DNA of 64,000 bases from Thamnaconus septentrionalis (lineage: Eukaryota > Chordata > Actinopteri > Tetraodontiformes > Monacanthidae): positions 2,547,966 to 2,611,965 of the forward strand of contig CM020514.1 of NCBI GenBank assembly GCA_009823395.1, written 5' to 3'. Of this stretch, positions 23,801 through 29,800 are shown piece after piece; position 1 is the first letter of the stretch, and each line of letters opens with the position of its first letter. A program made the translations under genes and the position numbers. The notes beneath the pieces are model-generated. The model saw only the letters and a program-made list of their open reading frames with translations. It was not told where the DNA came from and did not search any database.

Positions 23801-26800
23801 TCACTCACGTTGCTAGCTAGCTTGCTGGCTCCTGGGTTTGATCGAGCGGTAACGTATCGCATGACCGAGACGAGCGCCTCGACACGCGTCAAGAGTTGAG
23901 CCATAGATGGATGTAGACGGAGGGAATCCGGTCATTCAGAAAATAAAAAAGCTGAATTCATTTGACAGACGACCCACAGGCCAGCACCGATCCGCAGCCG
24001 GGGGTCGGGGACCACTGCTTCTAGTGATACATCCACTGACCCTCCACTGTACACATCCAGAGAAGCTCCATCAGACCGCTCTGGCTGTGCTGTGCCTCTA
24101 ATGTACTCATCCCTGATCCTATCCATCCTGATCGTTCCCAAAGAAGAACTCAATATTTTAACGCCGCCGACCTTCAACTCTGCCGCCCGCCTTTTTTCTC
24201 AGTGCCCCTCTTTCGAAACCGAGCACCATCGCAGCTCTTCCACCATTTCCATCACCTTTTATTCACTTCTGATACTCGTATATTGTTCATCGCAGCTGAC
24301 AATTTTCCCAGCCCGTTCCAGCCTGTTTCCACATGCTTCCTCACCTCTTTCTCACACCCTCCGCTTCTCTTGACCGGAAATACTTAAAATCTTGCACACC
24401 GTTTCGCCCGGGTGGGTCCTTCTCATTCACACTCTCGTTCTGCCTCTCTGCAGTTGACCTTTACTCCTCTCCTTTCCAGGGCCCATCTACCTCCACCTCT
24501 AGATTTTCCTCCACCTGCTCCCTGCTCTCGCTGGAGACGACAATGTCATCTGCAAACACCGCAGTCCATGGCAATTCCTCTCTAATCTCATCCGTCCTGT
24601 TCATCCGCATAGCCAACAGGAAGGGTCTCAGGGCTGATCCTCGACTCCCACCTCCACCTTCGGCTCTTCTGACCCCCCGCAGCACCTCGCCAATGTCTTG
24701 CATCTCTCATACATGCCTTGCGCCGCTCTGATGCACTTCTCTTCCACTCCAGACTTTGCTCAGGCGGTATCACGGCTCCTCCCTCGGCACTCTTTCACAT
24801 GCTCTTTCTACAGCTTCCTCTGACCTTTTCTATGCTCCTCTGTCAACGAAAACACATCAACAATGCGGTTTACCGCCGTTGCGTTTTCATTAACTTTCGC
24901 CAAAATTGTACGGCACCATCTGTCAGCTCAGATGGCAGAATTGCAAGCTCATATCCCGTTCATATCAGATTTATTTCCACACAGGAAAAAGGGGCCTGGC
25001 ACTGGCCTGGAACTGTGTGCCTCCTTTTTCCTTCTGGTTATGAGTCACATGTGATCTGTGCCACAGGGTGGAAAACACAGTTTCCCCCTTTGAACAATAT
25101 ATTGTTGCAAAACTACTGGAAAAGTATGGAGAAACTCGTGCTATTCAGTGACTGACAGCGGCAGCGAGCTGCAGATGGATCAGCTGTTCGCCAGCCGCAA
25201 CAGCTGCGGAGACTTTAACGGGCAACTGCTGGTGTATTAAAGAGCTCACAGTATTGATTTATTAAAAGGTCAGTGAATTATACAATTAACTACAGCGGCG
25301 GTGGTGACTTCAGATTGTGTAGGACCTTTTCAGATGGGCAAGTGATGTTCCTTAACCACACAGTAATCTCAATTGAAATTGGGAACATCGGGTCATTTGC
25401 ACCCCTCAATGTGTACAGGTAATCATTTCAATATTGAAAATGTGAAAATGAAACTACAAAACCCACAAAACGTTACTTTTGCTATTTGATCTCATTTTAA
25501 ATATACAAATTATTTGCCATTTACATTTACAGGTGATTCTGTGTGCATGGCATATGAGTAATAATGAGTAACAGACCATTTTCACTCAACTCAGAATGCA
25601 CTCAGGGCTGAATACTAAATACTATTTAGATTGCAGTTTAAAATCTTTAAAGTGCAGTAGCTGTGTACGACATACATACGGCAAGACAGCAAGGCCGTCT
25701 ACGTGCTTTCTGTGTGAGACAAGGCACATTTTATGTGGAAAAAGGACAAAAGAGAGGTTGACGGCGGGCGGGAGGGGAAAAACTCTCGACAGCATCCACG
25801 GGCTATAATTAACAGAGGCTGGAGTCGATTCCCCTCTAGCAGCGACCCTGCCCCTGGCCTTCCTGCCTCCACACAGCGCACCCATCATTGACTGCTCAGC
25901 AACCCTCTGGAACCAGAAAACAGGGCATCCGCAGCCATTCATTTGATTTGCAGAGAGCCATGCTTGACTTTGACGGTGGTGCCACTACTGGCTGTCACGA
26001 TAAAGTCTGGTCCACCTGAAGTTACGCACGCGCGTTCTAAGCCACATTAGTACGTGGTTATATTATTTCTTTTTCTATTTGTCTAATACATTCACTGTGA
26101 GCTGGATTTAAGAAATGCTTGTACTGTATATTTTCTCCCATAAAGGGACCAAAGTTATAAAAAAAACACCCAAATGGCTTTCTAATGGGTGATTGGTTTG
26201 CTCTAAATGAAATAAATGTCCACTTTAAGACATACAACAACAACAACTGTACACTGTATGGAATTTATGGCTTCTCAACACAAATGCACAAATGCATACA
26301 TTTCACTCGGGCCACTGAAAACCCCAATGCAGATCAATAAACTGGATGCATGATGGAAAAAAAAAAAGGTGGCACTCCCATTCAGATAGAAGGCGTGTCT
26401 CTCTTTCTCCCAATAGTTCAGTTTGGAGCTGTGGCCAAAGCAAATGTCATCACTTCTATTAGGAATCCAACAGGGAGTGACTAACTAGGTGTGCAATCCC
26501 AGCCTGGCATTTTGTTTGTTTACAGGGTAAACTACCCATACGTTGAATTGTAGATTTTTTTTGCCTCGGCGTTTATCTCGCCGGACATTTTTCTTTCATT
26601 TTTTCGTCTTCGACGGTTGATTTTAAAATCCGATTTCGATGCTGACTGGTCGTCGCTGGTTCTTTGGCACGACCAGAGTAACATAGGAGAGGGGCGGGGA
26701 AGCGGTTCGAGCGGACGTCAGATCAGAGCGAACTGTGCGATCCAGGGCGAGCGACGGCGTTCCGGGGTGGGAAACCCTGGATGAGCAGTGCGTCCGCTTG

Positions 26801-29800
26801 GAGAGAGGAGGATAGGAGGACGCGTCGCCTGTGGAGATGACAGACATTGGGGGACAGGACAAGCAAGAGCAAGGAGGCGCCAACAAGAAACGCTGCTCTG
26901 ACCACCACGGCCCCGATCGTAGACCCAGCGTCCCGAGAGGCATTGGCACCCCGAACAAGCATGTGCACGAGCGCCACGGCTCGTCCTCTCATGGGGAGGC
27001 GTTTGAAGAAGACTTTGAAGAGTTTGTCTTGGATTTTGACGACTACGACCTGCTCGAGTCCATCCACACCCACATGGAGACGCCGGCCGAGCCCACGCGT
27101 AAGTTCCTGCGAGGTCCATTCCCTGTAACTTTCTCTGCCTGGCGTTCCGCTCTGCCAAAAGGGTGAATGTCACTTCCAACTTCCAGTGGAGGAAAGGTCA
27201 CATGACGAGCCTCATGTTCTATTTTTACACGGGCGATCAATGAATGGGAGCTCGCTTGTTTCCATTGACTGCAGTCGGCTTGCGTAATTGCCACATACGC
27301 TTCATTCATGTGCACACTGCGAGCTGTCCGCGGTATTGAGTAGATTGACAGGGAGCTTGACTGCTGCCGTTTCCTGCTTCCCTTATTGATCTGGTGGCAC
27401 CCATTTGGTCTTTTTGGGGTTAGCTGCAGCTGGAGCAGAAAGACAAGTCCATTGACCAGGAATTCTTGGGTTTTGCTACATTTTAGCGCAACTCTTGACT
27501 TCAATTGTCATATATTTGGTCTGGACTGCAAACCTTCATTGCATGCAGCCAAAGTCTGCATTGAAAGAAGACAATATTTTGTACGTCTCTGTCTGATAAT
27601 CTGTGCATTCCTCTGAAGTTGAATCGTAAATTAGCCTGGGTATCCAACAGTGATCACAGCATTATTTAGAGGTATTTCCTCCCTTATTAAAACAAAAGGA
27701 ATCAAAAATGAAAAAAAAAAAAAAAAAGGCCCCAACATTTTAGAAGGTTTGGGAACTATCTAGGAGCAAATGTGCCATTTATTCCTTGAACTAATGAATT
27801 TCTTTATTTAAATATAGGTCCTTGTTATCCTATAACTTGAGTGCCAGTCCATTTGTCCATTTATATACATACAGTATACAGGCAGATGAGAGACCTGTCA
27901 AACCTCAACAACCACTCACTTAAGATGATCTCCCAGAGAAATACAGGCAGCAACAAATTTTGCCTCACGCAAAGTGATGCCACACACCCTATGTGTGTGT
28001 ATTGTTCTCTTGTTGCGAGCTGGCTCCACTCGGTCATATTACGGCTGGCGAAATGACAGCGTACCTCCTGCTCTCAGCACTGTGTCAAACAACAGGATAT
28101 GTTGGCGAATGGACGCCGCTTGAATGCTACACAGCCTAAATTGTACTTTACAAGAAAAATTCTACGCAAAAAAAAAAAAAAATACCAAGAGGAACAATCC
28201 TCTGGGTTGCAATATATTGTACTAACTTTGGGTCATGGTCACATTAGATCATCTGTTGCTCAATGACGGTTCAGTGGAGCTACACCAAAGGCTGCTGGAG
28301 ATGTACTGCACCTGTTTATGTGGTTTCTGTGTACCTGCGGTGCCTCATTATAACCAAAAAAATCTACCTGTCGGTTTTTTTTTGCTTTGCCATAATTTGA
28401 GTGGATTAGACTTTAAATGGCAACAGTATGTACACAGTTATATATATCAACATACAAGCAAGATTAAGAGTGAAAGATATTATAGAAAGATCTGTTTGGA
28501 CACAACGAGATGTATTAACAATAAAAAAAAAAAGTTTTATAGTGTTTTTCAAGTAGTACTGCTTTCTATAAATATATTTTTAAAAAATAAAGTAGATAAC
28601 ATTGTAGTAATGAAGAATCATCCTAGTTTTGAGATTAGTATCGGCTTTGCTTCTTGAATTTCCGTGTGAAACCAAGAAGCAGTTATGTTCCCCATGTAAG
28701 CCCAATTGCAGGCCCAGAAAGGAGAACATCAGAAATTATTAGGTATTATGTCAACAGGCACTTCTGTGATTGCTGCCCTAATCCTCCAAGTCATATCATT
28801 CATCTTCAATATGGGTATTTGAATTGGAAACGTTTAACGGGCAATGAACAGATGAACGTTAACTCAGAGTAATCCTTAAAAAATACTTAACGAGCGTATG
28901 ACTTACAGTTGTGTTTTTGCAACTGATCGGATAACGGGGGCTTATTGTGGATAATAAATTCCTGGACACTGCTGTTGATGGTTAAAGGCACTGGCGTTTC
29001 AAAAGTAAGCAGTTTTGTGTTTACTCAAGATTAAAGGCCTTGGCGGAGCCAGAGCAACATTTCAAAAGGAGGAAAGGGATAAAGCCAAAGTCCTTTTCAG
29101 TCTGATTTATTTGACCTGTCCGTGCACTGCTTTTAGGTGGGAAAGATCTGTTTGTTCGGATCAGATGGAACAGATCATCGAAGGCCAGCTTTTATAGTCC
29201 CCCCTCCCCCGCCCCACCCCTAATGAAATAAACAGCCCAGCCTTATTTCGGCTTCCAAATTCTGCCTCTGTCCCTGAAGACGGGGCGACATAGCAACATG
29301 AAATATGGGCTGAAATTTATGCACAGGCATATACTCCTTCCACCTCATCTCCTCTTTTCTTCCGACTCTCTTGTGTGTGTGTGTGTGTGTGTGTGTGTTG
29401 GCTTTGTGACAAATTGTTTTCAGCTGTTGGCCTGTCTGTTGGTCAACAGCGGTTCAAGGCTGCTTTGCAACGCTTCATCTGATTTGTTCAACGTCCGGAT
29501 TCTTGACCGTTATCGCCACAATCTCAGGTCAAAAGTATGAGCATACATAACATCACACATGTTCAAGGTTGAAGGTTCGACTCTACTGATGATTTTGCTT
29601 GGCGCCCGCTTTGGTTTTTAATCAGCCTCCGACTCCAACTCCAAAAGACACGATCTGAATCTTTGCTTTTCAGACTGTCCGGCCAAATCGTTGGGTTTCC
29701 TAACATCCATCTAGCGAACAAGCGATCAACCTGCAGATCTGCCTGTTGAAAACTGTCAAATTGCGCCCGCCTTGGTTCAGCCTCTCAAAACAAACAGCTG

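What the first reader, a model, noticed from the sequence alone, without database searches (positions are those of the whole stretch)
26380..27098. Internal first exon that would give a cardiac-type AE3 in a fish
An ATG exon in intron 5 of slc4a3 ends in a consensus donor in exactly the phase needed for exon 6. Its position and predicted product (1024 residues, unique 88-residue N-terminus) mirror the mammalian cardiac AE3 form, whose transcript starts in the equivalent intron. That would make the dual-promoter layout older than the split of fish and tetrapods. The fish peptide has a strong acidic-aromatic block (about residues 55-74) that may be a docking site. Seen: frame, donor, phase, size. 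Known: mammalian layout. Inferred: promoter use and heart expression.
Basis: partly seen in the sequence, partly recalled or inferred. Interest (0 to 1): 0.75.

Follow-up and report, generated by a model that had tools for sequence, protein, structure and literature searches.

The report
Ancient alternative first exon of AE3
A stretch inside one intron of this fish's AE3 bicarbonate-transporter gene is the fish counterpart of the mammalian "cardiac" first exon, and relatives of it in a shark, lungfish, an amphibian, reptiles, a bird and mammals suggest that it dates back to early jawed vertebrates.

Summary
An ATG exon at 26837-27098 lies in slc4a3 intron 5 (23066-30452), ends in GTAAGT in phase 1, and joins exon 6 (30453) at the position of human AE3 residues 271/272, where mammalian brain and cardiac AE3 diverge. 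It is not a chance frame. Three searches returned 135 proteins; 77 carry the same segment, from ray-finned fishes, lungfish, axolotl, squamates, a bird, four mammals and a dogfish shark; 49 of the 77 are named as isoform X models. Where present, a block of about 23 residues varies as little as the transporter's cytoplasmic core, while most of the exon varies freely. It is largely kept in two marsupials and altered in the two placentals seen. A CpG-rich stretch with a GC box directly upstream fits a promoter. Transcription start, junction reads and heart expression were not testable. The block's partner or role is unknown; docking or self-regulation is inferred. New member of a known kind.

The parts
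26837..27098 (+). coding part of the alternative first exon (C1 equivalent), 87 codons plus the first base of a split Arg codon
   Evidence: relatives
27008..27076 (+). conserved acidic-aromatic block EDFEEFVLDFDDYDLLESIHTHM (residues 58-80)
   Evidence: the block HMM matches only this exon among frames of the window and loci L001-L030
27099..27104 (+). donor GTAAGT, phase 1
   Evidence: 97th percentile of GT sites on the + strand; within the range of the 9 other donors of the gene that were scored; 6 further listed positions were off by a few bases and not scored
26537..26836 (+). CpG-rich stretch directly upstream (30 CpG, o/e 1.45), GC box GGGGCGGGG at 26691; candidate promoter and 5' UTR
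   Evidence: indirect, stretch chosen after looking
23066..30452 (+). slc4a3 intron 5, host of the alternative exon
30453..30592 (+). slc4a3 coding exon 6, shared by both forms; begins at the position of human AE3 residue 272; carries the basic hinge
22855..23065 (+). slc4a3 coding exon 5 (brain form), phase-1 donor GTGAGT; 5' boundary approximate

Best explanation
The stretch is the fish orthologue of SLC4A3 exon C1, an alternative first exon. Shown: it encodes a start peptide homologous to that of other vertebrates' short AE3 forms, lies in the equivalent intron, and joins the same exon in the same phase. Inferred: a CpG-rich promoter just upstream starts a second transcript that leaves out coding exons 1-5 and gives an AE3 of about 1020 residues with the full Cl-/HCO3- exchange core but a different cytoplasmic start. 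Inferred: the part under strong constraint, a 23-residue acidic-aromatic block, is the working part, acting as an isoform-specific docking or self-regulating tail beside the basic hinge coded by exon 6, in the way the alternative N-termini of NBCe1 tune that transporter. Inferred: use in heart and perhaps retina, by analogy with mammals.
For: Relatives with the same N-terminus: E 4.3e-48 to 3.5e-15 in ray-finned fishes, 1.4e-18 in lungfish; axolotl, squamates and a bird from a lungfish query; opossum, bilby, bat, rhinoceros and dogfish from a bird query. Of 68 carriers without an exon-5 segment, 67 begin within 125 residues of the junction, 47 of those 67 with MTD. The junction residue in those 67 is Arg 45, Cys 14, Ser 4, Gly 4, the four NGT codons expected of a phase-1 join to an exon starting with GT. 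The junction equals the published divergence point (270/271 against 72/73 residues). In 27 carriers the block has a mean majority fraction of 0.82, equal to the Band 3 cytoplasmic core, against 0.31 for the first 55 residues. CpG: the count in 26537-26836 is reached by 0.3% of 300-base windows of the 64 kb; the fixed-grid windows at 26501-26651 rank at 0.7 to 1.7%; in 80 kb around four paralogues 3 of 1552 windows reach the count, none with o/e of at least 1.2. The shark protein scores AE3 1302 bits, AE2 1232.
Against: No RNA evidence. Relatives were found by matching the block or exon 6, so conservation is ascertained; 58 of 135 retrieved proteins lack the block (50 of exon-5 type, 8 other starts), though none of the 58 hides a diverged block (best 0.9 bits). 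9 of 77 carriers place the block as an internal segment after exon 5. No TATA, CArG, MEF2, NKX2-5 or MCAT consensus in 26300-26836. The zebrafish heart phenotype was rescued by human AE3 from NM_201574, which is the long form, so the short form is not needed for that rescue. One paper gives another boundary for cAE3 (lacking residues 1-296; PMC11271275 passages). The hydrophobic-moment test does not support a plain amphipathic helix; the AlphaFold2 model is too poor to use (mean pLDDT 37). Human, rat and zebrafish C1 peptides were not retrieved.
Confidence: 0.9

Rival explanations
1. The segment is a cassette exon included between exons 5 and 6 of the long form, not a first exon.
For: 9 of 77 carriers read exon 5 into the segment.
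Against: Those models enter the segment at different places. In the window the frame is closed by TAG at 26813, so a cassette acceptor would have to lie at 26816 or later. Of the other 68 carriers, 67 start near the junction and 47 share MTD. Mammalian C1 is a first exon.
Confidence: 0.06
2. The exon and promoter are real but are used mainly outside the heart in fish, for example in retina.
For: Mammalian cAE3 is also in retinal horizontal cells (PMC1950688 passages). No heart-type motif found upstream by simple consensus. The passages seen of two fish slc4 surveys do not separate slc4a3 isoforms. Long-form human AE3 rescued the zebrafish heart phenotype.
Against: Knockdown of zebrafish slc4a3 shortens QTc and raises ventricular pH (section 11 of PMC5700076), so some form acts in fish heart; the RT-PCR forward primer printed there encodes FEDNPG of the shared exon by my reading, so the form is not known.
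Confidence: 0.3
3. A chance open frame next to a chance donor.
For: 14 of 1000 intron shuffles give such a frame.
Against: Relatives with E as low as 4.3e-48 in fishes, and others in lungfish, tetrapods and a shark.
Confidence: 0.01

Closest known systems
Mammalian cardiac AE3 (SLC4A3 exon C1; cAE3, AE3c)
   Same: Equivalent intron, same junction (human 271/272), same splice phase, homologous unique N-terminus with the block in opossum, bilby and, altered, in bat and rhinoceros; 72-73 unique residues in the mammalian reports (passages) against 88 here.
   Different: Fish exon is longer and its block keeps residues that differ in the two placentals seen (EDFEEFVLDFDDYDLLESI against EDLEMFVLDLEDCDLWEST in bat); promoter and tissue use in fish untested.
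Kidney and erythroid AE1 (SLC4A1 alternative promoters)
   Same: Second promoter inside the gene changes the cytoplasmic N-terminus of a band 3 family exchanger (review passages).
   Different: [quoted passage not shown] no block-like segment was found in 40 kb around the two slc4a1-like loci of this genome.
NBCe1-A and NBCe1-B N-termini (SLC4A4)
   Same: Alternative promoters give alternative N-termini beside a shared core; one end inhibits and the other stimulates transport (review passages).
   Different: No sequence kinship tested or claimed; used only as a model of how such a tail can work.

Membership tests
SLC4A3 exon C1 / cardiac AE3 | Exon lies between the coding exons that meet at human AE3 residues 271/272 | tested here: met
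SLC4A3 exon C1 / cardiac AE3 | Donor in phase 1 and in frame with the shared exon | tested here: met
   NGT junction codons implied in 67 of 67 rows
SLC4A3 exon C1 / cardiac AE3 | Unique N-terminal peptide homologous to that of mammalian cAE3 | tested here: met
   four mammals; the chain of searches runs fish to lungfish to bird to mammal. Human and rat C1 peptides themselves not retrieved
SLC4A3 exon C1 / cardiac AE3 | Gene is slc4a3, not slc4a2 or slc4a1 | tested here: met
   window groups with Nelusetta AE3; related fish protein P0002 scores AE3 1419 bits, AE2 1322; the window's own full product was not scored
SLC4A3 exon C1 / cardiac AE3 | Own transcription start directly upstream | tested here: inconclusive
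   CpG cluster and GC box only; no RNA data at hand
SLC4A3 exon C1 / cardiac AE3 | Expression in heart and in retinal horizontal cells | not testable with these tools
   no expression data held

The most novel reading that the evidence does not exclude
The acidic-aromatic block is an ancestral jawed-vertebrate docking or self-regulating motif that defines the function of cAE3, and it has partly decayed in placental mammals, so that the rodent and human proteins in which cAE3 has been studied have lost much of what the exon originally did. The Leu that replaces Trp in ray-finned fishes would mark a second change of partner or affinity.
Probability: 0.3. Interest if true: 0.6.

Novelty: new member of a known kind. 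Interest (0 to 1): 0.42.

Why it matters
AE3 moves bicarbonate out of heart muscle cells, and a loss-of-activity mutation in it causes short QT syndrome. Showing that its separate first exon is shared by a shark, ray-finned fishes and tetrapods makes the two-form layout a likely basic feature of jawed vertebrates. It singles out about 23 residues as the part that selection has kept, and makes fish a fair model for isoform-specific tests.

Tried and rejected
Amphipathic-helix reading of the block: the helical hydrophobic moment is no higher than in shuffled peptides (p 0.76 to 0.93 in five of six species, 0.23 in rhinoceros). Solved structure of the block: no match in PDB sequences up to E 10. 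AlphaFold2 of the related protein P0002 with 27 sequences: mean pLDDT 37, uninformative; the only helix in its unique part is residues 71-78 at low confidence, so no fold search was run. Block-like segments beside the paralogues: the block HMM found nothing credible in 80 kb around the two slc4a1-like and two slc4a2-like loci (best 5.4 bits, E 1.8) against 54.6 bits for the window exon; the naming of these loci rests on exon-6 letters and the tree and is an inference. Known short-motif classes (dileucine, LIR, FFAT, kinesin W-acidic) were considered from memory; none seemed to fit all clades; not tested. Rfam scan of 23000-31000 at gathering thresholds: nothing. The 105-column tree places the window with the filefish Nelusetta but does not resolve the shark rows, so bit scores against AE3 and AE2 were used instead. 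On checking, I dropped a statement that five block positions are invariant in the 78 rows: four of the five were demanded by my own search pattern; only the Glu after DYDL(L/W) is a free invariant there. In the 27-row alignment made without that pattern six block columns are invariant, but its rows were picked for having the block.
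Full report
What was checked. The window is part of a 474 Mb genome held as G000. Brain-type coding exons 1-5 lie at about 14816 (weak match, E 0.056), 19230, 20270, 21261 and up to 23065, and exon 6 begins at 30453. Among the rows compared, the nearest is AE3 of the filefish Nelusetta ayraudi, Monacanthidae (98% over 105 columns; taxonomy).

The exon. ATG 26837 opens a frame to 27098, where GTAAGT follows. 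The split codon C|GT gives Arg and leads into HRFEDNPGMRRHL. Human AE3 in the PDB has Ser271-His272 at this point. The literature places the end of the unique part of mammalian AE3 at residue 270/271 of the long form and 72/73 of the cardiac form (passages of PMC4664831; PMC1950688; PMC4876561; 73 in dog, PMC3124514). One paper differs (cAE3 lacking residues 1-296; PMC11271275 passages). [quoted passage not shown] human intron 6 is the fish intron 5 once the human non-coding first exon is counted.

Is it chance? Homology settles it. A search with residues 1-130 of the predicted product gave 80 proteins with E up to 1 among 170 candidates; one with the lungfish protein gave 68 of 283; one with a bird protein, cut so that long AE3 forms could not be candidates, gave 57 of 613. 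Together these are 135 proteins. 77 carry the block before the junction: 68 without exon-5 sequence and 9 with it; 50 have only the exon-5 type and 8 other starts. The 77 were picked with a letter pattern; a block HMM finds no diverged copy among the other 58 (best 0.9 bits). By their names, the carriers include many teleost genera, gar, sturgeon, lungfish, axolotl, squamates, one bird, opossum, bilby, one bat, one rhinoceros and the dogfish Scyliorhinus canicula (Chondrichthyes); 49 of the 77 bear an "isoform X" name by my count. The dogfish protein is AE3-like (1302 bits against human AE3, 1232 against AE2). Unless the shark model is wrong, the exon is at least as old as the last common ancestor of jawed vertebrates; this rests on one shark protein.

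Splicing. In the 67 carriers whose junction lies within 125 residues of the start, the residue before HR(F/L)ED is Arg in 45, Cys in 14, Ser in 4 and Gly in 4. These are the amino acids of the four NGT codons, as expected if each exon ends in phase 1 and exon 6 begins with GT.

What is conserved. In an alignment of 27 of the 77 (A1), the block has a mean majority fraction of 0.82, the Band 3 cytoplasmic core 0.82, the transmembrane part 0.86, the last 8 residues of the exon 0.53 and its first 55 residues 0.31. These 27 were chosen because they have the block, so the figure says how it varies where present, not how often it is kept. The residue after DYDL is Leu in 64 of 78 rows (the window and, as far as named, ray-finned fishes; three of these rows have no species name), Trp in 13 (shark, lungfish, tetrapods) and Arg in 1 (rhinoceros); Trp is therefore probably ancestral. 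Two marsupials keep most of the block (EDFEAFVLEFEDYDLWELI in bilby). In the two placentals it is altered (EDLEMFVLDLEDCDLWEST; EDLEMFVLDLEDYDLRESP); with two automatic models this is a lead, not a result. Other placental cAE3 proteins were perhaps hidden in 90% clusters whose long representatives the length filter excluded (inference).

Promoter. The 300 bases before the ATG hold 30 CpG (o/e 1.45), a count reached by 0.3% of 300-base windows in the 64 kb. I chose that stretch after looking; fixed-grid windows at 26501, 26551, 26601 and 26651 rank at 0.7 to 1.7%. In eight 10 kb stretches around four paralogues 3 of 1552 windows reach 30 CpG, none with o/e of at least 1.2. A GC box lies at 26691. 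No TATA box or muscle-type motif was found by simple consensus in 26300-26836. Other CpG clusters of this strength exist in the window. This fits a CpG promoter but does not show one.

Other copies. A block HMM built from 55 distinct rows hits only this exon in the window and loci L001-L030 (54.6 bits), and nothing credible in 80 kb around the slc4a1-like (contigs C3, C15) and slc4a2-like (C20, C4) loci. A whole-genome search with the exon peptide was asked for repeatedly and never answered, so other copies elsewhere are not excluded.

How it may work. The product keeps the exchange core and replaces the long N-terminus by a tail whose constrained part is acidic and aromatic (charge -6 to -9 in nine species), directly before an exon-6 hinge of charge +8 to +15. 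A docking motif for a cytoplasmic partner, or a fold-back tail that competes for the hinge, are both open. The nearest worked example is NBCe1, whose alternative N-termini inhibit or stimulate the transporter (PMC4464172 passages). The hydrophobic-moment test was negative and the structure prediction too poor to use. In zebrafish, slc4a3 knockdown shortens QTc (PMC5700076 section 11), but human AE3 from the long-form record NM_201574 rescued it, so that work does not assign a role to the short form.

Novelty. The mammalian layout is known. Fish and shark counterparts already sit in public databases as automatic isoform models. In the listings returned by the searches (capped lists, titles and abstract starts) I saw no paper describing them; one search searched five block strings and found 0 papers. 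The paper on zebrafish Ae3 cloning (Shmukler 2014, PMC4113327) was seen only as a reference entry and is not held; from memory, its abstract reports repeats that disrupt the 5' end of the zebrafish gene. No row named zebrafish carries the block, so zebrafish may have lost it or was missed. This is a new member of a known kind with a useful evolutionary reading.

Noticed in passing
window 60165-60626 (+): Open frame with an IGFBP domain (PF00219, E 3.4e-12); a neighbour of slc4a3, in keeping (from memory) with the human 2q35 region.
   Followed up: no
window 26639-26686 and 26781-26840: Two upstream reading frames before the exon's ATG; the second ends in TGA overlapping the main start (ATGA). 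Possible translational control if the start site lies upstream.
   Followed up: no
window 5751-6250, 19651-19950, 40701-41150, 63151-63800: Other strong CpG clusters of the window; what they belong to was not examined.
   Followed up: no
window 35674-35950: Long (TA)n-rich microsatellite in an slc4a3 intron just before the exon at 35951.
   Followed up: no
block rows: Leu in the named ray-finned rows where shark, lungfish and tetrapods have Trp after DYDL (rhinoceros Arg): a clade-level substitution inside a tightly kept motif.
   Followed up: partly
P0047, P0057, P0006, P0026, P0046, P0050, P0062, P0083, P0084: Gene models that chain exon 5 into this segment, entering it at different places; probably prediction artefacts, but a real cassette use in some species is not excluded.
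   Followed up: partly
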